From Acidimicrobiia bacterium (GTDB lineage Bacteria; Actinomycetota; Acidimicrobiia; Acidimicrobiales; Poriferisodalaceae), in the NCBI GenBank assembly GCA_022824805.1, contig JAJDZE010000147.1, positions 1-61,230 of the forward strand: a DNA stretch of 61,230 nt. Direction: 5' to 3'. Positions 17,889-29,363 of the stretch are shown here, in pieces; position 1 is the stretch's first letter, and every line of letters begins with the position of its first letter. The notes below the pieces were generated by a model. That model saw only the letters and a list, made by a program, of their open reading frames with translations, ran no database searches and was not told the DNA's origin. The position numbers and the translations under genes are program-made.

Positions 17889-18653
17889 CTAGAAGAGCCG
17901 ACCAGGCGCCGCTTCAGTTGCATCTGCGGGTTCGATGAGACTGGCATCGCTGTTGCGAACATTGCCCACCTCTCGACCCACCCGGTGCGAACGCAGGATG
18001 CCCTCATCCGCGGGCACGCACATGGCCGACAGCACCTCGACATCGTCGTTGGCCGAGTCGAGCCACGCTTCCCACTGCCAGCGTTCCAGCAGCACCGGCA
18101 TGCGGTCGTGAATCGGCGTCATGAAGCTGTTCGCGGCGGTGGTCAGCACAGTTGCCGAGTGAAGGGCCTGACGTGGACCGCCCGAGGCATCTGCGTTCGC
18201 TCCGTCGGCTGCATCGCCGCTTGAAGGCGGCGACCAGCGTTCCCACAGGCCCGCCATGGCGAGCATTGCGCCGTCGGTACGGGTGATGTAGTGCGGCAGC
18301 GGCCGGCCGTCACGGCTCGTCCCTGTCGGCATCTTGGGCCACTCGTAGAAGCCGTCGGCCGGGACGATGCAGCGGCGCCGTGTGAACGCATCACGGAACG
18401 AGTTCTTCGTCGCCGCGGTCTCAGACCGGGCATTGAACAGCGGCGAGCCCTTCGTAGAGTCGGCTGACCAGGCCGGCACGAGGCCCCACCGGAACGTCTC
18501 GATCCTGCGGGCATCATCGTTGCCCACCACGGCCACGATGTCGGCAGTGGGTGCCACGTTGTAGCTGCGGGGTGCATCGAAAGCCGGCAGCGGGGTGTCG
18601 AAGTGCGCCGCGATCTGTTCAAGACTGGCCGATGCGACGAACCTCCCGCACAT
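17889..18653 (-). CDS. HMCES/YedK-like SOS response-associated protein
   Basis: 254 aa. The initiator Met is followed by catalytic Cys2 (MCGRF), with the Asn in SYNVAPT, Glu in DGFYEWPK and His in PIHDRMPVLL. HMCES proteins form a thiazolidine crosslink with abasic sites in single-stranded DNA to shield them. A stretch near the middle (SSGDAADGANADASGG) is an inserted flexible loop. ATG 18653 follows a TACGCT box by 6 bases. It is convergent with the HIT gene. Confidence 0.9.
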   Translation of the reverse strand: MCGRFVASASLEQIAAHFDTPLPAFDAPRSYNVAPTADIVAVVGNDDARRIETFRWGLVPAWSADSTKGSPLFNARSETAATKNSFRDAFTRRRCIVPADGFYEWPKMPTGTSRDGRPLPHYITRTDGAMLAMAGLWERWSPPSSGDAADGANADASGGPRQALHSATVLTTAANSFMTPIHDRMPVLLERWQWEAWLDSANDDVEVLSAMCVPADEGILRSHRVGREVGNVRNSDASLIEPADATEAAPGRLF

Positions 18654-18677: not shown

Positions 18678-18911
18678 TCAGCTGCCCGCTTCGAATTCGG
18701 AGCGAGGCACTCCCGATTGGCGGATGATCGACAGCAGTGTGCCGGTGCGCAATTCGCGGTGCATCGGAACCGGCACGGTGATCGTGCCGTCGGGGCCAGA
18801 CTTCTGCATCGCGAGATGACTGCCTCGCCGTCGGACCTCGGCAAAGCCATGAGCCGACAGGATGCGGCACACGTCGTGACCGGACAGAACGCGCAACCTA
18901 CCCAACGGCAA
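18678..18911 (-). CDS. hicA: HicA-like mRNA interferase toxin
   Basis: 77 aa. The short dsRBD-like HicA fold is clear: SGHDVCRILSAHGFAEVRR, then the catalytic His in RGSHLAM, GTITVPVPMHRELRTGTLLSIIRQ. It cleaves mRNA when free of HicB. Its start overlaps the end of hicB by 14 bases. The order hicB-hicA is the reverse of the E. coli arrangement. Confidence 0.85.
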   Translation of the reverse strand: MPLGRLRVLSGHDVCRILSAHGFAEVRRRGSHLAMQKSGPDGTITVPVPMHRELRTGTLLSIIRQSGVPRSEFEAGS

Positions 18912-19119
18912 CCTCGATCTGCGTCACATAGACCTCGCCTCGCGAGCGCCGCCGGACCTCTTCGGTGGATGCGGTCTCAAAGAACAACGCGAGTGCTTCA
19001 GCGAGATTCTCGCGTGCCTCCGCCACAGTTGCGGCCTGGCTGGCGACGTCCACTTCGGGGCAGAGCGCTACATAGCCATCTCCGTCTCGTTCGACGATCG
19101 CCGTCAAGAGCCTGTTCAT
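18898..19119 (-). CDS. hicB: HicB-like antitoxin
   Basis: 73 aa. The partly degraded RNase-H fold of HicB is seen in AIVERDGDGYVALCPEVDVASQ and TVAEARENLAEALALFFE. There is no obvious C-terminal DNA-binding domain, so autoregulation may rest elsewhere. GGGAGG lies upstream of ATG 19119. It precedes hicA and shares a transcript with it. Confidence 0.85.
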   Translation of the reverse strand: MNRLLTAIVERDGDGYVALCPEVDVASQAATVAEARENLAEALALFFETASTEEVRRRSRGEVYVTQIEVAVG

Positions 19120-19233
19120 CTCTCGCCTCCCGGCACTGTTGTCAGATCCACAGCATGTCCAAGTCCAGAATATGCCCGCAGATGGTCAAGGCCGACAGCT
19201 TCGACGATTGTCCGATGCTCCTCGACTCCCACA

Positions 19234-19353
19234 CGTCGGCATGCTGCCCTACCGGCTTGACGCCCGCACGGAGTCCTGCCTCGTAAGCGTTCGCTGACTC
19301 AGTCGACATGGCGGCGCTTCGGCCCGCATGCGGAAGGAGAGCCTTCAGCGTTA
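19234..19353 (+). repeat. Left direct repeat of the defence island
   Basis: About 120 bases matching 27409-27528 at roughly 101 of 120 positions in an ungapped hand alignment. It begins CGTCGGCATGCTG and runs past a TGACTCAG. The same orientation as the right copy. Confidence 0.8.
19235..19297 (+). pseudogene. hipA 3'-end remnant
   Basis: Twenty codons plus TGA encode VGMLPYRLDARTESC then LVSVR, against VGMLLDRLDTRTKSC then LASVR at the C-terminus of the intact hipA at 27472. No hipA-like sequence continues upstream in frame. It is a decayed or truncated second hipA copy, or the target-site duplicate of an insertion. Confidence 0.65.
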
Positions 19354-19409
19354 CGATGCACATGAAAATAATTTGAAATTCATGAATTATCATTGAATGA
19401 TCTCTGATC

Positions 19410-19610
19410 GTGGGATTTGTCGACGATCTCTGGACGCTGCTGTTGTCCGACGACGAAGCCGAAGAACAGGAAGCGCTCGACCGGCTGCTCGCTGACGAAG
19501 CGGCAACGGAGACTGCGCTGGCGACGTTCTTCGTCGACGAGTCGGACTCTCAACTGCCGCAGCCTCGCACAGGCGCCCCAGAAGCCGCCCCCGATCAAGG
19601 ACCGAGGTGA
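19410..19610 (+). CDS. Small acidic hypothetical protein
   Basis: 66 aa with 17 Asp/Glu, three Arg and no Lys. The N-terminal 45 residues (VDDLWTLLLSDDEAEEQEAL and on) look helical and the tail is Pro-rich. GTG 19410 lies just after an AT-rich patch that includes the palindrome AATTCATGAATT. It sits immediately upstream of the restriction-modification gene. No family recognised; a DNA-mimic role is only a guess from charge. Confidence 0.4.
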   Translation: MGFVDDLWTLLLSDDEAEEQEALDRLLADEAATETALATFFVDESDSQLPQPRTGAPEAAPDQGPR

Positions 19611-19710
19611 GGTGCTGCGCCCGGCGCGCCCCGTGATGGGACTCCCGACCCAATCCTCGCGGCCATCCGTAGACCGCTTGGTGGATTCCGTCCCCTGGCA
19701 TCGGCACCGG

Positions 19711-19716
19711 TACTGT
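19711..19716 (+). promoter_or_regulatory. Leaderless -10 box for the restriction locus
   Basis: TACTGT, 7 bases before ATG 19724, which opens a 12-codon leader rather than the main gene. No good -35 is visible. Confidence 0.45.
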
Positions 19717-19723
19717 TCGCGTC

Positions 19724-19762
19724 ATGTTCCGAGCGCTGCACTGTCCGGCAGTCAGCCGATGA
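19724..19762 (+). CDS. 12-codon leader peptide
   Basis: ATG at 19724 encodes MFRALHCPAVSR and a TGA at 19760-19762 that overlaps the ATG (19759) of the restriction gene as ATGA. With a leaderless -10 box just upstream and no Shine-Dalgarno before 19759, the main gene is probably translated by coupling from this leader. Confidence 0.45.
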   Translation: MFRALHCPAVSR

Positions 19763-22700
19763 CGACGAATTCGGCACCGTTCGACCTCGTGACGCTGCTG
19801 ACCGATCGGTACCCATCGCCGACTGCACGCGGCAGCGCATTCGAGCGCCTGATGCAGCAAGCCTTCCGGCAGCACCCCGACGTGTACGGGCCTCAACGCT
19901 TCAAGCAAATATGGCGTTGGATGGAGTGGCCCGAGCGGGTCGAACGCGGATACGGCGCCGATGCAGGCATCGACCTCGTTGCCGAGCAGACCGAAGAAGC
20001 CGGCGGGGGCCTGTGCGCCATCCAGACCAAGGCATATACCTCCCGGCGCATCGATAGGCCCGCTGTCGACTCGTTCATCTCCGAGTCTGACAGCGACGAT
20101 TTCTCCGCGCGGCTGCTGGTGTTGACGGCGCCCCTCACGGATCACGCCCGCAGGGCAGTCGAGAAGGCGGTGCCGCGCTGCGAAGTGCTGCACCGCAGCG
20201 ACCTCGAGTCGTGGCCCGTCAACTGGGACGAGTGCCTCGACCACCCGGCCGAGTTGCGCTTCACGCCCCAGCCGCGCCATACGCCCAAGCCGTTTCAGGT
20301 CGAGGCGATAGCGAAGGTGCTCGACGGGCTCGCCGCGGGAGACCGCGGACGGCTCATTCTGCCCTGCGGAACGGGCAAGTCGGTCGTCTCGCTGTGGATT
20401 GCCGAACAGCAGGCCGGCGTCGGCGGGCGGGTCCTGTACTTGGTGCCCTCAATCGCTCTGATGAACCAGACGATGCGCGAATGGGCACGCCAGCGAAATC
20501 CCGACATTGCGCATCGTTACATCGGCGTGTGCTCCGATACCCGCGCCGGACACGCGGCCGAGGATTCGCCATTGGCCGAGCTGGCAATGCCGGTCACCAC
20601 CGATCCGCAGCGCATCGCAGCGCAGCTAGCCATGAGCGATTCGGAGGCGATGACCGTCGTGTTCTGCACCTACCAGTCGCTCAGCCTCATCGCTGACGCG
20701 CAGGCTGGAGACGAGTCGGGCACCCGGGTACCCCCCTTCGATCTCGTGCTCTGCGACGAGGCACACCGCACCACCGGCATCGAGGACACGAAGACGCCGA
20801 AGAAGGCCAAGGCCGACAGTCGGACGATCACCCCGTACTCCTTCATTCACAACCCGGAGCGCGTGCGTGCCCACAAGCGCCTCTATATGACGGCGACACC
20901 TCGCGTCTACACCGAGGCAGCCAGGCGCCGAGCCAACGAGCACGAGCGCGACTTCGACGTCTTCTCCATGGACGACCCGAGCATCTACGGTCCTGAGCTG
21001 TACCGCATGTCGTTCGGCGACGCGGTCGAGGGCGGCCACCTCACCGACTACAAGGTGCTGGTCATCGCGGTGGCCGAGAACCCGGTGCTCGATGCATTCG
21101 ACAGCATCGTGATCGACGACGATCGGCCATTCAGCATCCACGAAGCAGTCCGCTTTGCCGGATGCTGGGACGGCTTGGCCGATCCCACCACCACCGCTGC
21201 TGAGGGCCGCATCACGGGCGCCGTCAACCCGCACGACGCTGCCCAGCGAGTCATCGCCTTCACCAACCGAATCCGCAACTCCCAACTGGTGGAGAGGTAC
21301 TGGAACCCCGTCGTCGAGGCGGTGGCTGCCGCGGTGCATGGTCGGACAGCGGCTGGCGATAAGGCCGAACTGCTCGGCTGCGACGTACGCCACGTCGACG
21401 GCTCGAAGAACGCGCTCGAACGAGCCGACACGATCGCATGGCTGCGACAAGGCGACGCCGACGGCGCCTGCCGCATCGTGACCAACGCCCGCTGCCTCAC
21501 CGAGGGCATCGACGTGCCGGCATTGGACGCCGTGATCTTCCTCGAACCGAAGCAGTCACAGATCGATGTCATACAGGCCGTCGGCCGCGTGATGCGGCGC
21601 GCCGAGCACAAAGATGTCGGCTACGTGATCCTGCCGGTGGTGGTTCCCTCCGGCGCAAGCCTGCTCGACGACCAGGTGCTGTCTGGCTCCGACTTCAAGG
21701 CCGTTTGGAAGGTCCTCAAGGCCCTGCGCTCGCACGACGAACGCCTAGACGTCGCGATCAACACAGCCGACCTGACAGGACGGCTGCCCATCAGCATCCT
21801 GCCGAGCGGCGTATGCAGCACATGCGGCCGGGCCGACGCCGAGTGTGACTGCGAGCAGGATGGCAACGGCGACATCGACGGCAAGGTAACCCAGCAGCGT
21901 CTGCCCTTCGAGCACGCCATTGCGTCACGGCTGGTGGCCGCCTGCGGGGATCGCCAGTACTGGGATCGCTGGGGACGTGAAGTAGCTCGGATCACCGGCA
22001 CCATCACTGAGCATGTGCGAACCACTGTCGGCGCAGACACCGACTTGGCTGCCAAGTTCGAGCGCTTCGGCGACCAGATGGAAGCCACCATCGGCGGGAG
22101 CCTGCCGTCGGGCGACCTTGCGGTGCTCGTAGCCCAGCACGTGGTCACGATGCCGGTCTTCGATGCGCTGTTCGCAGGCAGCGGTTTCGCTGACCGCAAC
22201 CCGATCTCTGCTGCGCTGAACGAACTGCTCGACGAGTTCAAGGCTGCCGACATCCGGCTTCGTGACGAGACGGTCGCATTGGACCGGTTCTACGACAGCG
22301 TCCGCAACCGTCTCTCTGGTGCGGCCGACTCCGATGCTCGGCTCAAGATCATGCTGGAGGTGTACGAGTCGTTCTTCAAAGAGGCGATGCCCGCCGAGAT
22401 CACTCGACTGGGGATCGTCTACACGCCTGTGGAACTCGTGGATTTCATGCTGCGGTCGGTCGACGCTGTGCTGCGCCAGGAGTTCGGACGCGGATTGACC
22501 TCGAAGGATGTCCATATCTTGGACCCCTTCACAGGCACGGGCACGTTCATCAACCGTCTGCTCACCCAGAACAACAGCGCCGGCGAGCCGCTGATCGCAG
22601 ACGAAGACTTGGAGCGCAAGTTCGTCAACACGCACAACCCGCTGGTGCCGGGCGGCAGCGTCCAAGAGATCCACGCCAACGAGATCGTGCTCCTCGCCTA

Positions 22701-24117
22701 CTACTTGGCCGCCATCAAGATCGAAGAGGGCTACCGGGACCGCACTGGCAGCTACGAGCCATTCAGCGGCATCGTGCTGACTGACACGTTCTCCCACGAC
22801 CCCGCAAGCCTGCCCGGAACGGGAACGATCGGCTACAACTCCGCGCGCGCCCGACAGCAAAACGAACTCCCCATACAAGTCATCATCGGCAACCCCCCGT
22901 GGTCGGCCGGCCAAAAGTCAGCGGGCGACGACAACCCGAACGTCGAGCACCCCCACATCGAGCAGCGCGTGCGCGACACCTACGGCCGCAGGCACCGCGA
23001 AGTCACCGGCCGCGGCGCCGGGCCGTCCTCGGGAAACCTGTACGTGGAGGCATTCCGCTGGGCGTGCGACCGCCTCGACACCCCAGAAGGCACTGGGGAT
23101 CGCCCTGGCGTCATCGCCATGGTGCATCCGAACTCGCTCTCGAATGCACCCTCGCTGGCAGGAATGCGTGCGTCGTTGCGAGACGAGTTCACCGACATCT
23201 ACGTCGTGAATCTGCTCGGCGACGCAATGAAGTCAGGCGATGACCGGCAACGTGAAGGCCAAAGCGCTTTCGGCCAAGGCTCTCGCAACGGCGTGCAGCT
23301 CACCGTGCTCGTTCGCAACCCGAGCAGGGGCCAAGGTGCAGCCACGCTGCATTACGCCGAAGCGCCCGAATACTCGACTCGTGACGCAAAGTTCGCTTGG
23401 CTCGCGGGCCTCGCCGACGTCACCGGCGACCAGTTCCAAACGGTGCCCGTCAATGACGCCCACGACTGGGTCAACCTCACCGACGACTCCTTCTCAGAGC
23501 TGCTGCCCGTTCTGACGGTCGGCCGGGAATCGTCGAGCGAAGCCGCCATCACCGAGCAGAGCGCCCTCGGTGCCAAGACGAACTGTGACGCCTACGTCTA
23601 TGCGTTCAGCCGGGAAGCGCTCTCAACCAAGGTGGCCGCACTGATTGAAGCCTACGAACGCGCACGTCAAGCCGTGGAACAGGGTGCATCCTTCGAGAGC
23701 ATCACCGCGAACGATGACCTCGAGACCATCAAGTGGACACATACCTTGAAGAGTTCGCTCAAGCGCAACCTCGAGATCGAATTCGACGAGAGCCGCATTC
23801 GCGAGGTGCTGTATCGGCCGTTCACCAAGCTCTGGCTCTATGAGGACCATCGCATCATTTCTCAAGCGAGGGCCACAAGTGACCTGTTCCCGCCGACCGA
23901 ATCTGCTAGGGACGCTACCGACCGACCGACCGACCGACCGACCGACCGACCGACCGACCGACCGACCGACCGACCGACCGACCGACCGACCGGGATCTGC
24001 ATCGCAGCGCCGAACAACCGGGCCGTCTTCGGAACACTGGCGACCGATTGCGTCGTCGACCTCTGCGCCTTCGGCACCAACCAGCCCGCCCGGGCCATCC
24101 CACGACGACGATCCTGA
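19759..24117 (+). CDS. Type ISP-like restriction-modification enzyme (helicase-nuclease-methylase), tail in frame 1
   Basis: 1452 aa single-chain enzyme. An Mrr-like PD-(D/E)xK nuclease (D72, QTK at 89-91) is followed by an SF2 helicase/translocase with GTGKS (204-208), DEAH (333-336), MTATPRV and QAVGRVMRR. Then comes an N6-adenine methyltransferase with DPFTGTGTF (~922) and NPPW (~1045), and a target-recognition region. It would methylate one DNA site and cleave unmodified DNA after translocation. At ~1387 an (ACCG)19 tract encodes (TDRP)6, then tail copy 1 ends at 24117. The family's last ~250 residues are encoded separately at 24343. An open frame back to 19417 is rejected as non-homologous. 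Confidence 0.85.
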   Translation: MTTNSAPFDLVTLLTDRYPSPTARGSAFERLMQQAFRQHPDVYGPQRFKQIWRWMEWPERVERGYGADAGIDLVAEQTEEAGGGLCAIQTKAYTSRRIDRPAVDSFISESDSDDFSARLLVLTAPLTDHARRAVEKAVPRCEVLHRSDLESWPVNWDECLDHPAELRFTPQPRHTPKPFQVEAIAKVLDGLAAGDRGRLILPCGTGKSVVSLWIAEQQAGVGGRVLYLVPSIALMNQTMREWARQRNPDIAHRYIGVCSDTRAGHAAEDSPLAELAMPVTTDPQRIAAQLAMSDSEAMTVVFCTYQSLSLIADAQAGDESGTRVPPFDLVLCDEAHRTTGIEDTKTPKKAKADSRTITPYSFIHNPERVRAHKRLYMTATPRVYTEAARRRANEHERDFDVFSMDDPSIYGPELYRMSFGDAVEGGHLTDYKVLVIAVAENPVLDAFDSIVIDDDRPFSIHEAVRFAGCWDGLADPTTTAAEGRITGAVNPHDAAQRVIAFTNRIRNSQLVERYWNPVVEAVAAAVHGRTAAGDKAELLGCDVRHVDGSKNALERADTIAWLRQGDADGACRIVTNARCLTEGIDVPALDAVIFLEPKQSQIDVIQAVGRVMRRAEHKDVGYVILPVVVPSGASLLDDQVLSGSDFKAVWKVLKALRSHDERLDVAINTADLTGRLPISILPSGVCSTCGRADAECDCEQDGNGDIDGKVTQQRLPFEHAIASRLVAACGDRQYWDRWGREVARITGTITEHVRTTVGADTDLAAKFERFGDQMEATIGGSLPSGDLAVLVAQHVVTMPVFDALFAGSGFADRNPISAALNELLDEFKAADIRLRDETVALDRFYDSVRNRLSGAADSDARLKIMLEVYESFFKEAMPAEITRLGIVYTPVELVDFMLRSVDAVLRQEFGRGLTSKDVHILDPFTGTGTFINRLLTQNNSAGEPLIADEDLERKFVNTHNPLVPGGSVQEIHANEIVLLAYYLAAIKIEEGYRDRTGSYEPFSGIVLTDTFSHDPASLPGTGTIGYNSARARQQNELPIQVIIGNPPWSAGQKSAGDDNPNVEHPHIEQRVRDTYGRRHREVTGRGAGPSSGNLYVEAFRWACDRLDTPEGTGDRPGVIAMVHPNSLSNAPSLAGMRASLRDEFTDIYVVNLLGDAMKSGDDRQREGQSAFGQGSRNGVQLTVLVRNPSRGQGAATLHYAEAPEYSTRDAKFAWLAGLADVTGDQFQTVPVNDAHDWVNLTDDSFSELLPVLTVGRESSSEAAITEQSALGAKTNCDAYVYAFSREALSTKVAALIEAYERARQAVEQGASFESITANDDLETIKWTHTLKSSLKRNLEIEFDESRIREVLYRPFTKLWLYEDHRIISQARATSDLFPPTESARDATDRPTDRPTDRPTDRPTDRPTDRPTGICIAAPNNRAVFGTLATDCVVDLCAFGTNQPARAIPRRRS
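23917..23992 (+). repeat. (ACCG)19 tetranucleotide repeat inside the restriction gene
   Basis: 76 bases, 19 perfect units, read as TDRP repeats in every frame, so no frame contains a stop. Gain or loss of one unit shifts the downstream frame by one base. It is positioned between the body of the enzyme and three alternative tails. Confidence 0.95.
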
Positions 24118-24346
24118 TCTCTGGGGCCTCGAACATGACCTTCCAAGCACTAGCGACGGACACCATGCCCGACATCGCGGCGATCAAGGGATCTCAGCAG
24201 ACGCGCGCACTGCCGCGACAGAGGCGATCCTCTTGAGCACGCCGTCCACCCGAACGACCTTTGCTGCGCTAGCCACACAGACGCTGCCGGACTTGCACGC
24301 CTTGGACCCGGCAGGACGCGCATTCCCGCGGAAGCGACAGCCATGA
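23994..24346 (+). repeat. Three tandem 116-bp tail cassettes, one per reading frame
   Basis: Copies begin at 23994, 24110 and 24226 (each starting GATC), spaced exactly 116 bases. In frames 1, 3 and 2 respectively they encode FGTLATDCVVDLCAF...RAIPRRRS, FQALATDTMPDIAAI...RALPRQR and FAALATQTLPDLHAL...RAFPRKRQP, with stops at 24117, 24236 and 24346. All match the family motif F-x-x-L-x-T-D-x-x-P-D-L near the end of Type ISP enzymes. Confidence 0.85.
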
Positions 24347-25182
24347 CTGAAACGCTCGATCTGCGAATGCCCGGCGACGATCAAGTGGCCGACACGGACA
24401 ACGTCAGTGACTGGGCATTGGAGCAGTTCCAAGCCAAATACGGCTCCGACATCTCCAAGGACGACATCTGGGAATACCTGTACGGCGTGATGCACTCGCC
24501 GGAATGGCGCGTCGACTACCGCCACGATCTTCAGCGCAACCTGCCGCGCATCCCGCTGGCCGACGATTTCGAACCGTTCCGGGCAGCTGGGCGCAAGCTG
24601 ATGGACCTCCACATCGGTTACGAAACCGTCGACGAATATCCAGTGCAGTGCCTCGTGGATAGTGAGCCGGACGAAGGCGACGCCGACGGCAGCGCCTACC
24701 GGATCGAGAGCCGGATGCGCTGGGGCAAGCGCTCTGACGGCAGCGAAGACCGCACTGTGCTCTTGGTCAACAGCAGGTGCCGCCTCGTCGGCATTCCAGT
24801 CGAGACCGCGCACTACACAGTGTCGGGGCGCACCCCGCTGCAATGGGCCATCGACAGCCTGCGCGTCAAGCACGACAAAGCGTCGGGCATCATCGACGAT
24901 CCCAACGGCTGGCGCGACTGGGCAGACGAGCCGTTCAACCTCATTCGCCACCTGCGCCGTCTCGTCACGGTGAGCTACGAATCGGCCGTCATCATCGCCT
25001 GGCTGCCCACCTCGCGGCCCGGCGAGTCACACCTGTACGAGCCGGGTCCCGTCACGCTCGCCGACATCATCGAATCGCAGGGCAAGGCACCACCGCTCGA
25101 AGACCCCACCGGCATCATCTACACCGACGAAGAATTCGTCGCGCACCTAGAGTCTCTTGCCGACGAACCGCCCGTCGGGTGA
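24343..25182 (+). CDS. Detached C-terminal domain of the Type ISP enzyme
   Basis: 279 aa. ALEQFQAKYGSDISKDDIW, EYLYGVMHSPEWRVDYRHDL and LPRIPLADDFEPFRAAGRKL match the extreme C-terminus of Type ISP restriction enzymes (LlaGI/LlaBIII group), where it belongs to the target-recognition region. Here it is a separate gene whose ATG overlaps (ATGA) the stop of tail cassette 3 only. In the present tract length the upstream protein stops 225 bases earlier, so coupling would be lost. It may supply DNA specificity in trans. Confidence 0.8.
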   Translation: MTETLDLRMPGDDQVADTDNVSDWALEQFQAKYGSDISKDDIWEYLYGVMHSPEWRVDYRHDLQRNLPRIPLADDFEPFRAAGRKLMDLHIGYETVDEYPVQCLVDSEPDEGDADGSAYRIESRMRWGKRSDGSEDRTVLLVNSRCRLVGIPVETAHYTVSGRTPLQWAIDSLRVKHDKASGIIDDPNGWRDWADEPFNLIRHLRRLVTVSYESAVIIAWLPTSRPGESHLYEPGPVTLADIIESQGKAPPLEDPTGIIYTDEEFVAHLESLADEPPVG

Positions 25183-25263
25183 CGGCCGGGCATCCGACCG
25201 CACGCGGCCGACAACTTTGGCGCATGACTGGGAAGCCAGGCGCCACTTCGTCACGTTCACCAT

Positions 25264-25563
25264 ATGCCGACACACCCAGAAGACAAAGCCTTCCTCCACG
25301 ACCATCGCCGGCTCTCCAGAGCGCAGCGGCGCCATCTGCGTCACGTGCTCAGCCTGATGGTCGGGGATCTGCGGCGGATGGAGTCTGGAACGGCCACATG
25401 GTTTCGCGATGGACTCGTCCGCAAGCTGCGAGGCGTTCAGGCACGCCACGAGTTGCGCTGGGCAGAGGATGGCCGCGCCGTATTCTCGTTCGGCGCCCCG
25501 CACCGGCCCGGTCACAGGCACATTCATTGGCACCGCTGCGGCACCCACGACATCCTGCCGTGA
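25264..25563 (+). CDS. Small basic protein, possible RelE/ParE-like toxin
   Basis: 99 aa. The order GDLRRM...TWFRDGLVRKLRGVQARHELRWAEDGRAVFSF (seen in parts) and HIHWHRCGTHDIL recalls the RelE/ParE sheet-and-helix pattern (RxLRG-x-x-x-x-ELRW ... HDI). Rich in His and Arg. No antitoxin-like gene is adjacent, and no Shine-Dalgarno is visible. It lies between the restriction fragment and hipB in the island. Assignment is tentative. Confidence 0.4.
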   Translation: MPTHPEDKAFLHDHRRLSRAQRRHLRHVLSLMVGDLRRMESGTATWFRDGLVRKLRGVQARHELRWAEDGRAVFSFGAPHRPGHRHIHWHRCGTHDILP

Positions 25564-25622
25564 GTTCACTGCTCGCCGTCGAGTTCCGAGCGAGGCTGTG
25601 CTCATTGTCCCGAGACACCGTG

Positions 25623-25678
25623 TGCATTCGTTCGAATGCAGCCGGAGCGATCTAGCAATGTGCATTGGATACGATGCA
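25623..25678 (+). promoter_or_regulatory. Twin operator palindromes upstream of hipB
   Basis: TGCATTCGTTCGAATGCA (25623-25640) and TGCATTGGATACGATGCA (25661-25678) are two 18-bp inverted repeats with TGCAT half-sites, centred 38 bases apart. A TAGAGT (25694-25699) follows as a possible -10. The spacing is what a HipB dimer pair would need for autorepression. Confidence 0.55.
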
Positions 25679-25715
25679 CGCGCAGCAAAGACGTAGAGTG
25701 CACTCAGTCGGCTGC

Positions 25716-26195
25716 ATGATGTATCGAAGCCGTTACGGTTCGGGCACGGACGAGCGCAGCGCCCGAACGCCCACAGCATGGTCCACGATGATGCCCGAGT
25801 CGACGAATCCGAAACCTGCAACGACGCCTGACAGCGATCAAGCCGGAGAGTCCAGCACGCCGTGCGGCGGTGGGCGGCAACGACCTTCCCTTGACGTCTA
25901 CACGGTCGAGGGGATCGGCGTGGCCGTGGCACAGCTGCGGCAAGCGGCAGGACTCACCCAGACGGAGTTCGGGGAGATGGTCGGCGCGTCGCGGCCCTGG
26001 GTATCCGATCTCGAGCGCGGGAACCTGCGGGGCGGTCAACTCGACACCGTGCTGGCATGCATCCGTGCACTGGGGTACCGAATTGTGCTGGAGGACATCG
26101 ACACCAAGCCCTCGAAGCTCGACGATCTCAAGAACGCCATGCGCATCGGACCGCTTGCACGCAGGCCCGCGGCCGCGTCTGACTCGCCGCAATGA
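25716..26195 (+). CDS. hipB: HipB-like XRE-family antitoxin/regulator
   Basis: 159 aa from ATG 25716. After a long polar N-terminus the helix-turn-helix reads VAVAQLRQAAGLTQTEFGE then MVGASRPWVSDLERG, followed by LACIRALGYRIVLEDID. It would bind the twin palindromes upstream and neutralise HipA. Starts at 25788 or 25791 would give a more usual HipB length and cannot be excluded. Its stop overlaps hipA (ATGA). Confidence 0.85.
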   Translation: MMYRSRYGSGTDERSARTPTAWSTMMPESTNPKPATTPDSDQAGESSTPCGGGRQRPSLDVYTVEGIGVAVAQLRQAAGLTQTEFGEMVGASRPWVSDLERGNLRGGQLDTVLACIRALGYRIVLEDIDTKPSKLDDLKNAMRIGPLARRPAAASDSPQ

Positions 26196-27472
26196 CAGCT
26201 CGACTCGCGGTCCTGCTGGACGGCCAGATCGTCGGCACGGTCGACGCCGGCCGTGCCAGTCGCAACGATGCATTCGTCTACAGCGATCGTTGGCTCGACC
26301 AGGGCGACAGCGCGATGCCGCTCTCGCTCAGCATGCCGCTGAACCGCCGTCGCCACCCGGCGAGCATCATCAGGACATGGCTCGAAGGCTTGCTGCCCGA
26401 CGATGCCGAACTGCTGCGGCACTGGCAACGAGTCACCGGCGCAGCCTCCACCGATCCCTTCGATCTCCTGGCGACGCCGATGGGTCTTGACTGTGCCGGC
26501 GCCGTACAGGTCTGCCCCGAGAGCGACGTCGACACTGCGCTGGCGCGCGGCGGGGGTATGCAGCGGCTCAGCGACAACGAGGTGGCGCGTCAGCTGAGCG
26601 AAATGCGGCAGCTCACGCATCTCGGATCCGACGGCGCCGTGCCCGGCTACTTCAGCCTCGCTGGGGCGCAGGCCAAGGTCGCGCTCCGCAGGCACCGCGG
26701 AGCGTGGCACCAGCCGCACGGCACTGCCGCCACTACGCACATTCTCAAGCCTGCGGTGTTCATGACACAGCATCAGGCTGTCATCGAGCACCTCTCCATG
26801 GCGGCAGCGAGTCGGCTGGGGTTCCCCACAGCGAACACCAAAATCGCTGTCTACGGAGGCTGCGACACGGTGATCGTGAAACGCTATGACCGCCGACGCA
26901 TCGGCGATCGACTGCTGCGGCTGCACCAAGAAGACCTGTGCCAAGCGCTCGGTCTCGCACCGACGCTGCGATACGAGCAGCACGGCGGGCCGTCGCTGAC
27001 ACACATCGTGTCACTGCTGCGCCAGCACTCGACCTCGCCTGACGAAGATGTGGCCGACCTCACCGACGCATTGGCCTATCAGTGGATCATCGGCGCGCCC
27101 GACGGCCATGCCAAGAACTTCAGCCTGATGCTCGACGCCTCGGAAGTGCGCCTAGCCCCCATGTACGACGTGTGCTCCGTGCTGCCCTACTTGGACCGGG
27201 ATGAGCCGGTCGGACATGCGTTCGCCATCGGCGGCAGTCACGCGGTCACGCCTGATGAGGCACCGACGCGCTGGACCCGATTCGCGGAGGACATCGACAT
27301 ACGCGCAGACCTGCTGCTCAACCGCATCCGCGACATCGCCGCGGCCGTCCGAAGCGCTTTCGCGGACGAGGCCGCTTTGCTGCCAGGAGAGCTTGCCGCT
27401 TCCCCCCGCGTCGGCATGCTGCTCGACCGGCTTGACACCCGCACGAAGTCCTGCCTGGCAAGCGTTCGCTGA
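26192..27472 (+). CDS. hipA: HipA-like serine/threonine kinase toxin
   Basis: 426 aa. The HipA N-domain (LAVLLDGQIVGTV) is followed by SLAGAQAKVAL (nucleotide loop), ILKPAVF with the Lys, VIVKRYDRR, HQEDLCQALG, the catalytic IGAPDGHAKNFS and the metal-binding Asp in LAPMYDVCSV. HipA toxins phosphorylate targets such as aminoacyl-tRNA synthetases and induce dormancy. Its last ~20 codons and 3' flank match the left border repeat of the island. Confidence 0.9.
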   Translation: MTARLAVLLDGQIVGTVDAGRASRNDAFVYSDRWLDQGDSAMPLSLSMPLNRRRHPASIIRTWLEGLLPDDAELLRHWQRVTGAASTDPFDLLATPMGLDCAGAVQVCPESDVDTALARGGGMQRLSDNEVARQLSEMRQLTHLGSDGAVPGYFSLAGAQAKVALRRHRGAWHQPHGTAATTHILKPAVFMTQHQAVIEHLSMAAASRLGFPTANTKIAVYGGCDTVIVKRYDRRRIGDRLLRLHQEDLCQALGLAPTLRYEQHGGPSLTHIVSLLRQHSTSPDEDVADLTDALAYQWIIGAPDGHAKNFSLMLDASEVRLAPMYDVCSVLPYLDRDEPVGHAFAIGGSHAVTPDEAPTRWTRFAEDIDIRADLLLNRIRDIAAAVRSAFADEAALLPGELAASPRVGMLLDRLDTRTKSCLASVR

Positions 27473-27528
27473 CTCAGCCGGCGTGGCCGTGCTTCGGCCC
27501 ACACGCGGGCGGTGAGCCTTGAGCGTGG
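27409..27528 (+). repeat. Right direct repeat of the defence island
   Basis: Covers the 3' end of hipA and 56 bases beyond the stop; about 84% identical by eye to 19234-19353. The similarity stops abruptly near 27530. Confidence 0.8.
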
Positions 27529-27559: not shown

Positions 27560-29242
27560 TCAGACGTAGGTGGAGCCCTTCATGCCGCCGCGGTCTTGGC
27601 GGATCTCGACGTTGACCAGTGCCGGCAGGCCTGAGTCGAAGGCTCGCTGCAGCGCAGGTGCGATCTGGTCGGGCTCGGTGACGTGCTCGCCATGGCCGCC
27701 CATGGCCTCGACCACCTTGTCGTAGCGGGTGTAGCTGAGCTCGGTGGCCACCACCCGGTCCTGGCCGTAGAGGCCGGCCTGCGGGCGCAGCATCTGGCCC
27801 CACGCAGCGTCGTTGCCGACCACACCCACGATGGGCAGCCCGAATCGCACGGCAGTGTCGTACTCGAAACCGTTGAGCCCGAACGAGCCGTCGCCGTAGA
27901 CGATGAGGACCCGCTTGTCCGGGTGTGCCTTCTGCGCTGCGAGGGCGAACGGCATCCCGACGCCGAGCGTTCCGAGCGGGCCAGGGTCCATCCAGGTGCC
28001 GCGCCGGGGCACCCGGATCACCTTGGAGGCCTGCGCCACGATGTCGCCGCCGTCGCCGATCACGATCATGTCGTCGGTGACGGCGTCGGCGATCTCGCGG
28101 CACAGCCGCAGCGGGTCGATCGGCACCTCGTCGCTGTTGAACTCGGCGCTGCGGCCCTCGTCCAGCTCGACTTCGCGCTTGCGCAGTGACGCAAGCTGTG
28201 CACTGGCGTCCACGGTCACGCCGGTTGCCTTAAACACGTCGAGCAGCGCATCGAAGTTGGCGCCCAGGTTGCCGACGAGACTGACGTCGGCGGGACGGTT
28301 CTGGCCGATGAGGGTCTCGTCGAGGTCGAGCTGCACGATGCGTGCGTCGGCCGGGATGGCGCGGCCGAACTTCATGCGGAAGTCGAGCGGCGTGCCGGCC
28401 AGGATCACCACATCAGCCGCTTCGAGTGCTTCCTTGCGGGTGAGCGAGAGGAACGACGGGTGATCCCACGAGATCTCCCCGCGCGCCATGCCGTTCACGT
28501 AGCACGGCACGGACGTGGCATCCAGGAATGCCGCCAACGCATCGCCGCCTTCGCTCCATTTCAGCGCCGTGCCCGCCATCACGACGGGCCGCTCCGCTGA
28601 CGCGATCAACTGGGCTGCCTCCTCCACCAGCGGGGCTGCAGCGGCCGCGGCCACCCGGTAGTCGCGGAACCGGGGCACCTCGACAGCGTCGAGATCGACC
28701 GTCCCATGCAGGATGTCCATGGGTATCTCCAAGAAGGCCGGCCCGGGCACACCACTGAGTGCCGTGCGCACGGCCAGCTCGATGTACTCGGCGATGCGGC
28801 GGGTCTCGCCGCACGCACCCGACCACTTCGTCACCGGCCGCATGAGCGACACATGGTCCATCTCCTGCAGCGAGCCACGGCCGGCATGCCTGAACGGCCC
28901 TTGGCCGCCGAAGACCAGGATCGGCGAATTGGCCCGCCAGGCATTCGCGACGCCGGTGACGCCGTCGGTCACGCCGGGACCCGCGGTGAGAATGGCCACG
29001 CCGACCTTGCCGGGGTGCAGGCGGGCCCATGCGTCGGCGGCGTGCGTCGCGGCTTGCTCATGGCGGACGTCGACCACCTCGATGCCCTCATCGAGGCAGC
29101 CGTCGTAGATGCCCATGACGTGCCCGCCCGACAGGGTGAACACGCACTCCACCCCGGCCGCGGCCAACGCCTTCGCGGCGAGCTTGCCGCCGTGGGTCTC
29201 GGTGGCCGTCACGCCTAGCGCTCGCCGTTCCTTGCCGCTCAT
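27560..29242 (-). CDS. Thiamine diphosphate-dependent enzyme (acetolactate synthase-like)
   Basis: 560 aa with the three ThDP domains. The catalytic Glu lies in VRHEQAATHAADAWAR, the central domain has VVMAGTALKWS, and the ThDP site is GDGGDIVAQASK then VYGDGSFGLNGFEYDTAVRF, with GDGS-x-N type metal binding. Related enzymes are acetolactate synthase, oxalyl-CoA decarboxylase and sulfoacetaldehyde acetyltransferase. No regulatory subunit is adjacent, so classic IlvB is less likely. GGAGG precedes ATG 29242; the ATG at 29272 lacks this. Confidence 0.8.
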   Translation of the reverse strand: MSGKERRALGVTATETHGGKLAAKALAAAGVECVFTLSGGHVMGIYDGCLDEGIEVVDVRHEQAATHAADAWARLHPGKVGVAILTAGPGVTDGVTGVANAWRANSPILVFGGQGPFRHAGRGSLQEMDHVSLMRPVTKWSGACGETRRIAEYIELAVRTALSGVPGPAFLEIPMDILHGTVDLDAVEVPRFRDYRVAAAAAAPLVEEAAQLIASAERPVVMAGTALKWSEGGDALAAFLDATSVPCYVNGMARGEISWDHPSFLSLTRKEALEAADVVILAGTPLDFRMKFGRAIPADARIVQLDLDETLIGQNRPADVSLVGNLGANFDALLDVFKATGVTVDASAQLASLRKREVELDEGRSAEFNSDEVPIDPLRLCREIADAVTDDMIVIGDGGDIVAQASKVIRVPRRGTWMDPGPLGTLGVGMPFALAAQKAHPDKRVLIVYGDGSFGLNGFEYDTAVRFGLPIVGVVGNDAAWGQMLRPQAGLYGQDRVVATELSYTRYDKVVEAMGGHGEHVTEPDQIAPALQRAFDSGLPALVNVEIRQDRGGMKGSTYV

Positions 29243-29363
29243 CTGGGACCTCCGCAACAAATCCTGCCGCAAGAGCTTGGCACGCGGCCTACGGTTGCGC
29301 CGCGGCGCCCAGCCGCCTATCGCCCGCCGAGCGCGGTGCCTCTCATGCTGTCAGCCCCCTTCG

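What the first reader, a model, noticed from the sequence alone, without database searches (positions are those of the whole stretch)
19234..27528. Defence/toxin island bracketed by direct repeats derived from the hipA 3' end
About 120 bases at 19234-19353 match 27409-27528 (roughly 101 of 120 positions), same orientation. The right copy is the end of intact hipA, the left encodes an isolated hipA C-terminus ending in TGA. The 8.2 kb between them carries the restriction locus, a possible toxin and hipBA. This suggests stepwise growth by insertion or recombination at hipA ends and a possible deletion route.
Basis: partly seen in the sequence, partly recalled or inferred. Interest (0 to 1): 0.75.

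Follow-up and report, generated by a model that had tools for sequence, protein, structure and literature searches.

The report
HipA fossil beside frame-switched restriction enzyme
The two matching hipA ends are an intact toxin gene and the decayed stub of another in a defence-gene hotspot, which is ordinary; but the restriction enzyme between them appears able to switch one DNA-reading segment among three alternatives by slippage of a short repeat, which would be new.

Summary
The repeat is real: 19228-19351 matches 27403-27526 at 105/124 positions; there is no other copy in the genome. It is not an attachment or insertion site. In four congeners and in related genera the flanking SRAP and TPP-enzyme genes sit 25-40 bp apart with no hipA end between them. 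In this genus the gap is a hotspot where a type ISP restriction gene, hipBA and hicAB occur in different orders. A relative has intact hipBA exactly where the left copy lies, and another keeps a hipA 3' stub where the right copy lies. The left copy has pseudogene-like substitutions: a fossil of a second hipBA. One relative lost most of its island through 9-bp microhomology, not hipA ends. So stepwise growth and loss are supported; targeting of hipA ends and deletion between the repeats are not. More interesting is the restriction gene in between. Its (ACCG)19 tract is followed by three tandem homologous segments in three reading frames, aligning with DNA-recognition Loop VI of LlaGI/LlaBIII. 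Similar arrays occur in 17 of 298 genomes of the order; 56 of 57 tract-free spacings are 2 mod 3. I infer a three-way phase-variable specificity switch.

The parts
17889..18653 (-). SRAP gene (HMCES/YedK family), left edge of the hotspot
   Evidence: Pfam SRAP E 9e-67; adjacent to the TPP-enzyme gene in four congeners and in outgroup genera
18678..19119 (-). hicA toxin (18678-18911) and a small hicB-like partner (18898-19119)
   Evidence: HicA_toxin E 6e-17; the partner has only weak family hits. The same pair lies on the TPP side of the island in G004 (80% DNA identity) and elsewhere in G006
19228..19351 (+). left repeat: last 23 codons of a former hipA plus 54 nt downstream; fossil
   Evidence: 105/124 identity to the right copy; coding differences 3,3,2 by codon position, no third-position bias; 16 of 24 three-way singletons on this branch
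19410..19610 (+). small acidic leader ORF upstream of the restriction gene; its start survives as a remnant in G001 and G002
   Evidence: translation; DNA alignment 19353-19510 in G001/G002, about 84%
19759..24117 (+). type ISP restriction-modification gene, main part (Mrr nuclease, SF2 ATPase, coupler, methyltransferase, start of specificity domain), presently in frame with cassette 1
   Evidence: Pfam Mrr_cat_2, ResIII, ISP_coupler, Type_ISP_C; LlaGI E 8e-209, LlaBIII E 2e-207
23917..23992 (+). (ACCG)19 simple sequence repeat, proposed frame switch
   Evidence: relatives have other non-triplet units at the same place (GA, GGAGC)
23995..24117 (+). cassette 1 (ICIAAPNNRAVFGTLATDCVVDLCAFGTNQPARAIPRRRS*), frame of the main ORF
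   Evidence: cassette HMM
24111..24233 (+). cassette 2 (ILISGASNMTFQALATDTMPDIAAIKGSQQTRALPRQRRSS), second frame, followed by a stop
   Evidence: open from before the tract
24227..24346 (+). cassette 3 (ILLSTPSTRTTFAALATQTLPDLHALDPAGRAFPRKRQP*), third frame; its stop overlaps the ATG of the next ORF
24343..25182 (+). separate ORF for the remainder of the type ISP specificity domain
   Evidence: Type_ISP_C positions 162-341, E 2e-45; LlaGI chain 1229-1400
25264..25563 (+). conserved 99-aa ORF that travels with the restriction gene, family unknown
   Evidence: no Pfam/PADLOC/NCBIfam hit; its end is conserved in G004, G005, G007
25665..26195 (+). hipB antitoxin (start codon uncertain)
   Evidence: HTH_31, HTH_37; TIGR03070 couple_hipB E 2e-10, below its cut-off
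26192..27472 (+). hipA kinase toxin, intact
   Evidence: HipA_C E 7e-48, Couple_hipA E 5e-19; aligns with E. coli HipA over residues 9-334 including GAQ.K, GA.DGHAKNFS and YD
27403..27526 (+). right repeat: 3' end of intact hipA plus 54 nt
   Evidence: 92% DNA identity over the 281-bp query to the hipA stub beside the TPP gene in G002
27560..29272 (-). TPP-dependent enzyme gene (acetolactate-synthase-like), right edge of the hotspot
   Evidence: Pfam TPP_enzyme_N/M/C; ortholog in all 11 genomes of the genus

Best explanation
(1) The interval is a defence and toxin-antitoxin hotspot between the SRAP gene and a TPP-enzyme gene, in a genus whose public relatives are uncultured Acidimicrobiia MAGs. 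Compact modules (type ISP restriction gene with two small ORFs, hipBA, hicAB) enter, change places and decay there. The right copy of the repeat is the 3' end of the intact hipBA; the left copy is the last 124 bp of a second, lost hipBA that occupied the slot between SRAP and the restriction gene. The direct repeat is therefore a by-product of two hipBA occupations. The order and dates of events are inferred. (2) The restriction gene between the repeats is proposed to be a three-way phase-variable enzyme. Slippage of the (ACCG)19 tract would shift the reading frame so that one of three tandem homologous segments, each in its own frame and ending in its own stop, is fused to the methyltransferase part; the rest of the specificity domain is a separate ORF. 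The segments align with the hairpin and DNA-recognition Loop VI of LlaGI/LlaBIII, so the switch would change the target sequence rather than only turn the enzyme on or off. The layout, the frames and coding selection on the segments are shown; slippage in living cells, use of each state and a change of specificity are inferred.
For: (1) Repeat, 105/124. SRAP and TPP gene 25-40 bp apart, without a hipA end, in G003, G006, G008, G010 and outgroup genera. G004 order SRAP-hipBA-RM-hicAB-TPP; G005 HIT-hipBA-SRAP-RM-TPP; G007 SRAP-RM-TPP; G002 SRAP-[leader ORF start]-[hipA aa 343-426]-TPP; G001 similar remnants. In G001, G002, G005 and G007 only about 43-65 nt separate the SRAP 5' end from the RM upstream region, where the window has 682 bp with hicAB and the hipA stub. 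Left copy: L-R coding differences 3,3,2 by codon position, 16 L-specific changes against 3 and 5; the TPP gene between the same two species shows 15,8,95. (2) 56 of 57 tract-free cassette spacings are 2 mod 3, against 5:5:3 (2,1,0) where a tract lies between. Cassettes open from before their tract 85/89, against 99/178 when the same intervals are read in the other frames; terminal blocks hold exactly three cassettes in 20 of 22 arrays, upstream blocks one or two, pass-through frame open 10/10. Substitutions in cassettes compared within their own frames sum to 16,5,68 at codon positions 1,2,3 over eight pairs. The repeat unit differs between relatives: ACCG, GA, GGAGC, poly-C/G, always non-triplet. 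Alignment to LlaGI/LlaBIII; Loop VI = LlaGI 1365-1374 from PMC4872093.
Against: (1) No genome carries two complete hipBA modules flanking the restriction gene, so the second occupation is inferred from a 124-bp stub. The stub is nearer to the right copy than to G004's hipA, so it is not a direct descendant of the G004 module. A partial tandem duplication of RM-hipBA followed by deletion is not excluded. (2) No reads or strains were available to show variation in tract length or methylation. The arrays are related by descent, so the spacings are not fully independent. The split specificity domain might not assemble, and how the downstream ORF is translated in states 1 and 2 is unknown. The Loop VI assignment rests on a weak local alignment and on approximate conversion of chain numbering.
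Confidence: 0.8

Rival explanations
1. Integrative element or genomic island that targets the hipA 3' end, so that the repeats are attachment sites and the 8.2 kb can excise.
For: Same-orientation repeats bracket foreign-looking genes with lower GC, 62-66% against 67-70%; such geometry is typical of islands in gene 3' ends (general knowledge).
Against: Empty sites lack any hipA end; no recombinase recognised among the proteins searched; 85% identity with a longest identical run of 18 nt; the intact hipBA would itself be inside the excised piece; no other genome holds the pair.
Confidence: 0.05
2. Partial tandem duplication of the RM-hipBA unit, followed by loss of the first RM and most of the first hipBA and arrival of hicAB, left the left copy.
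For: The left copy continues 54 nt past the hipA stop with the same spacer as the right copy and then joins RM upstream sequence directly, as a tandem-duplication junction would.
Against: Needs more steps; R and G002 are closer to each other than either is to L, so the duplication would have to predate that species split, yet G001 and G002 show no left stub. An independent hipBA insertion carrying its own 3' flank explains the same junction, and G004 shows that this slot is used.
Confidence: 0.25
3. Restriction gene: the three segments are decaying duplicates, and the gene is simply on/off phase-variable or a pseudogene split by frameshifts.
For: The specificity domain is split over two ORFs in every relative examined at this locus; on/off phase variation of restriction genes by repeat tracts is well known.
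Against: Each segment is under coding constraint in its own frame, including segments out of frame with the present state; spacing 2 mod 3 in 56 of 57 intervals; 'three after the last tract' in 20 of 22 arrays and 10/10 open pass-through frames.
Confidence: 0.12

Closest known systems
hipBA type II toxin-antitoxin modules and defence-island hotspots
   Same: hipB upstream of hipA, conserved kinase motifs, clustering with a restriction gene between housekeeping genes, turnover and remnants
   Different: nothing fundamental; the same module family sits in three different slots of one hotspot across sister species
Type ISP restriction-modification enzymes LlaGI / LlaBIII (PDB 5ffj, 4xqk; PMC4872093)
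   Same: nuclease, ATPase, coupler, methyltransferase and specificity domain in the same order, E about 1e-208
   Different: the prototypes are single chains with one fixed specificity domain; here the domain is interrupted by a non-triplet repeat tract and three frame-staggered alternative segments, with the remainder on a separate ORF
C-terminal phase variation (Neisseria gonorrhoeae, Helicobacter canadensis; PMC5320596)
   Same: a repeat tract near the 3' end of a gene changes which C-terminus is read from the three frames
   Different: there the alternative tails of a gene differ in length and are not described as homologous; here all three frames carry homologous, selected segments aligned to a DNA-recognition loop, and longer arrays have several tracts in series
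Phase-variable specificity of type I hsdS loci by recombination (PMC7394358, PMC6265443)
   Same: the outcome proposed: one enzyme, several target specificities within a clone
   Different: those loci swap by recombination or inversion between hsdS copies; here by slippage and reading frame within one gene

Membership tests
hipBA toxin-antitoxin module | HipA kinase fold with P-loop/active-site motifs (GAQ.K, DGHAKN, YD) | tested here: met
   alignment to E. coli HipA; HipA_C and Couple_hipA
hipBA toxin-antitoxin module | HTH antitoxin gene directly upstream, overlapping | tested here: met
   ORF 25665-26195 overlaps hipA at 26192; HTH domains
Integrative element using the hipA 3' end as attachment site | site-specific recombinase in the element | tested here: not met
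   no recombinase family among the island ORFs searched
Integrative element using the hipA 3' end as attachment site | empty site retaining one copy of the repeat | tested here: not met
   SRAP and TPP gene adjacent without any hipA end
Type ISP restriction-modification enzyme | Mrr nuclease, SF2 ATPase, coupler, gamma-type adenine methyltransferase and specificity domain in this order | tested here: met
Type ISP restriction-modification enzyme | all domains on a single polypeptide | tested here: not met
   specificity domain split: Type_ISP_C 4-150 in the main ORF, 162-341 in ORF 24343-25182; same split in relatives. Filed as a type ISP variant, not a canonical member
C-terminal phase variation | non-triplet repeat tract near the 3' end with different tails in the three frames | tested here: met
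C-terminal phase variation | tract length varies between cells or strains | not testable with these tools
   no reads or conspecific strains; only species-level differences of tract unit and length

The most novel reading that the evidence does not exclude
The restriction gene inside the bracketed interval belongs to a class of type ISP enzymes in this bacterial order that choose one of 3, 5 or 7 alternative recognition segments by repeat slippage. Each tract acts as a three-way frame switch: one or two local segments plus a pass-through frame to the next tract, and three segments after the last. This would be a combinatorial frame code for restriction specificity.
Probability: 0.75. Interest if true: 0.88.

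Novelty: new variant of a known kind. Interest (0 to 1): 0.6.

Why it matters
The repeats themselves matter little: they show how toxin-antitoxin modules turn over in a hotspot and leave stubs. The restriction gene between them matters more. If confirmed, a clone could carry several restriction specificities at once and switch among them by slippage alone, without recombinase or donor gene, changing both phage resistance and genome-wide methylation. It would also be a natural example of exchanging one recognition element of a type ISP enzyme, relevant to the long-standing difficulty of re-engineering restriction specificity (PMC4872093). Methylome sequencing could test it directly.

Tried and rejected
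A terminator hairpin in the 54-nt spacer of the repeat: folds are no better than shuffles, z -0.65, -1.09, -0.48, not claimed. Exact 18-mer shared by both copies in viral contigs: no match. An integron attC reading: no GTTRRRY core seen by eye in the spacer, dropped. An early reading that the remnants in G001/G002 are the first 31 aa of the restriction protein was corrected: they match the leader ORF 19410-19610 in another frame. Cassette search in a phylum-wide sample of 396 genomes: only the window's own genome matched, so outside this order I have no example. Literature searches for repeat-selected alternative recognition segments found C-terminal phase variation in general but no such restriction system; the library holds open-licence papers only.

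Full report
Observation. The direct repeat is exactly as described, 101/120 at the given coordinates, best extent 19228-19351 against 27403-27526, 105/124. Only these two copies exist in the genome. The match covers the last 23 codons of hipA with its stop and 54 nt beyond it. It is far outside chance: the next best ungapped match of the left copy in the window is 62/124.

Setting. The window is contig C158 of a 3.69-Mb, 211-contig genome. Its public relatives are Acidimicrobiia MAGs; that they are sponge-associated is my guess from isolate names, not tested. The repeats lie between an SRAP gene and a TPP-enzyme gene. In G003, G006, G008 and G010 and in outgroup genera these two genes are 25-40 bp apart. 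So the island is an insertion at a site that held no hipA sequence. G009 has a 78-bp spacer that shares a short SRAP-side sequence with island-bearing genomes, possibly a scar.

Architectures in window orientation. Window: SRAP, hicAB, hipA stub, RM, small ORF, hipBA, TPP. G004: SRAP, hipBA, RM, small ORF, hicAB, TPP. G005 (joined across two contigs): HIT, hipBA, SRAP, RM, TPP. G007 (two contigs): SRAP, RM, small ORF, TPP. G002: SRAP, start of the leader ORF, hipA aa 343-426, TPP. G001: SRAP, leader start, end of small ORF and hipB upstream, a piece of hipA, contig end. The hipA proteins of G004 and G005 are 65% and 69% identical to the window's, whereas other full-length hipA genes in these genomes are about 41% or less, so one hipBA family occupies several slots of one hotspot. 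hicAB of the window and of G004 are 80% identical in DNA and lie on opposite sides of the restriction gene.

The left copy. It lies in the slot that holds complete hipBA in G004. Between left and right the coding differences are 3,3,2 at codon positions 1,2,3, and 16 of the 24 three-way singletons fall on the left branch; for the TPP gene between the window and G002 the counts are 15,8,95. It has therefore evolved without visible coding constraint. R and G002 differ by 8 of 124, in line with the species divergence. I read the left copy as the stub of a second hipBA, left where hicAB and earlier deletions removed the rest; independent insertion and partial tandem duplication cannot be separated with present data.

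Deletion route. G002 shows a deletion from the leader ORF to inside hipA. Compared with G001 (leader side) and the window (hipA side), the junction is a shared 9-mer, TTCGCCATC. Thus loss here went by microhomology. No genome shows the product expected from recombination between the two hipA ends.

The restriction gene. ORF 19759-24117 is a type ISP enzyme whose specificity domain is interrupted by (ACCG)19 at 23917-23992. Behind the tract come three tandem segments of about 39 aa in three frames, period 116 nt, each ending in a stop; the last stop overlaps the start of ORF 24343-25182, which encodes the rest of the domain. G004, G005 and G007 have the same layout with different tract units (GA, GA, GGAGC) and partly different segment order. 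A segment profile found arrays in 17 of 298 genomes of the order, in seven genera.

Tests of the switch. Of 57 tract-free spacings, 56 are 2 mod 3; with a tract between they are 5:5:3. 85 of 89 segments are open in their own frame from before their tract, against 99 of 178 for the same intervals read in the other frames. Terminal blocks contain three segments in 20 of 22 arrays; upstream blocks contain one or two, and the third frame is open through to the next tract in 10 of 10 cases. Substitutions between orthologous segments fall mainly on third positions of each segment's own frame (sum 16,5,68 over eight comparisons), including segments not in frame at present. The segments align with LlaGI chain residues about 1178-1215 and LlaBIII about 1332-1376; by approximate conversion this spans the hairpin 1347-1358 and recognition Loop VI 1365-1374 of LlaGI (PMC4872093). 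The arrays share ancestry, so these counts are not independent trials.

Judgement. The repeat is ordinary module turnover, interest about 0.25 on its own. The restriction gene raises the interval to 0.6. The nearest precedent is C-terminal phase variation (PMC5320596), hence 'new variant of a known kind'.

Noticed in passing
window 23917-24346: (ACCG)19 tract followed by three homologous segments in three reading frames within the type ISP specificity domain; proposed three-way phase-variable specificity switch.
   Followed up: yes
L173 (G241), L175 (G296), L180 (G121), L183 (G279), L185 (G219), L197 (G179), L182 (G075): Longer arrays with 5 or 7 segments and 2-4 repeat tracts in series: one or two segments per upstream tract, three after the last (G075 shows seven segments, with an eighth partial match), with an open pass-through frame; looks like a hierarchical frame switch.
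   Followed up: yes
L058 end and L059 start (G005): The restriction gene of G005 has inverted dinucleotide tracts (GA)n...(CT)n and a second pair at the contig break; possibly an additional invertible or misassembled segment.
   Followed up: no
window 24343-24346 and cassette junctions: Stops of cassettes overlap the start of the next cassette (NTGA) and the last overlaps ATG of the downstream ORF; possible stop-restart coupling that would keep the downstream ORF translated.
   Followed up: partly
L056 (G002) about 2400 in window orientation and window 27221: 9-bp microhomology TTCGCCATC at the junction of a large island deletion.
   Followed up: yes
window 25264-25563: Conserved 99-aa ORF of unknown family that travels with the restriction gene.
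   Followed up: partly
L052 (G009) 1612-1690 in window orientation: 78-bp SRAP-TPP spacer that shares a short SRAP-side sequence with island-bearing genomes, possibly a deletion scar.
   Followed up: partly
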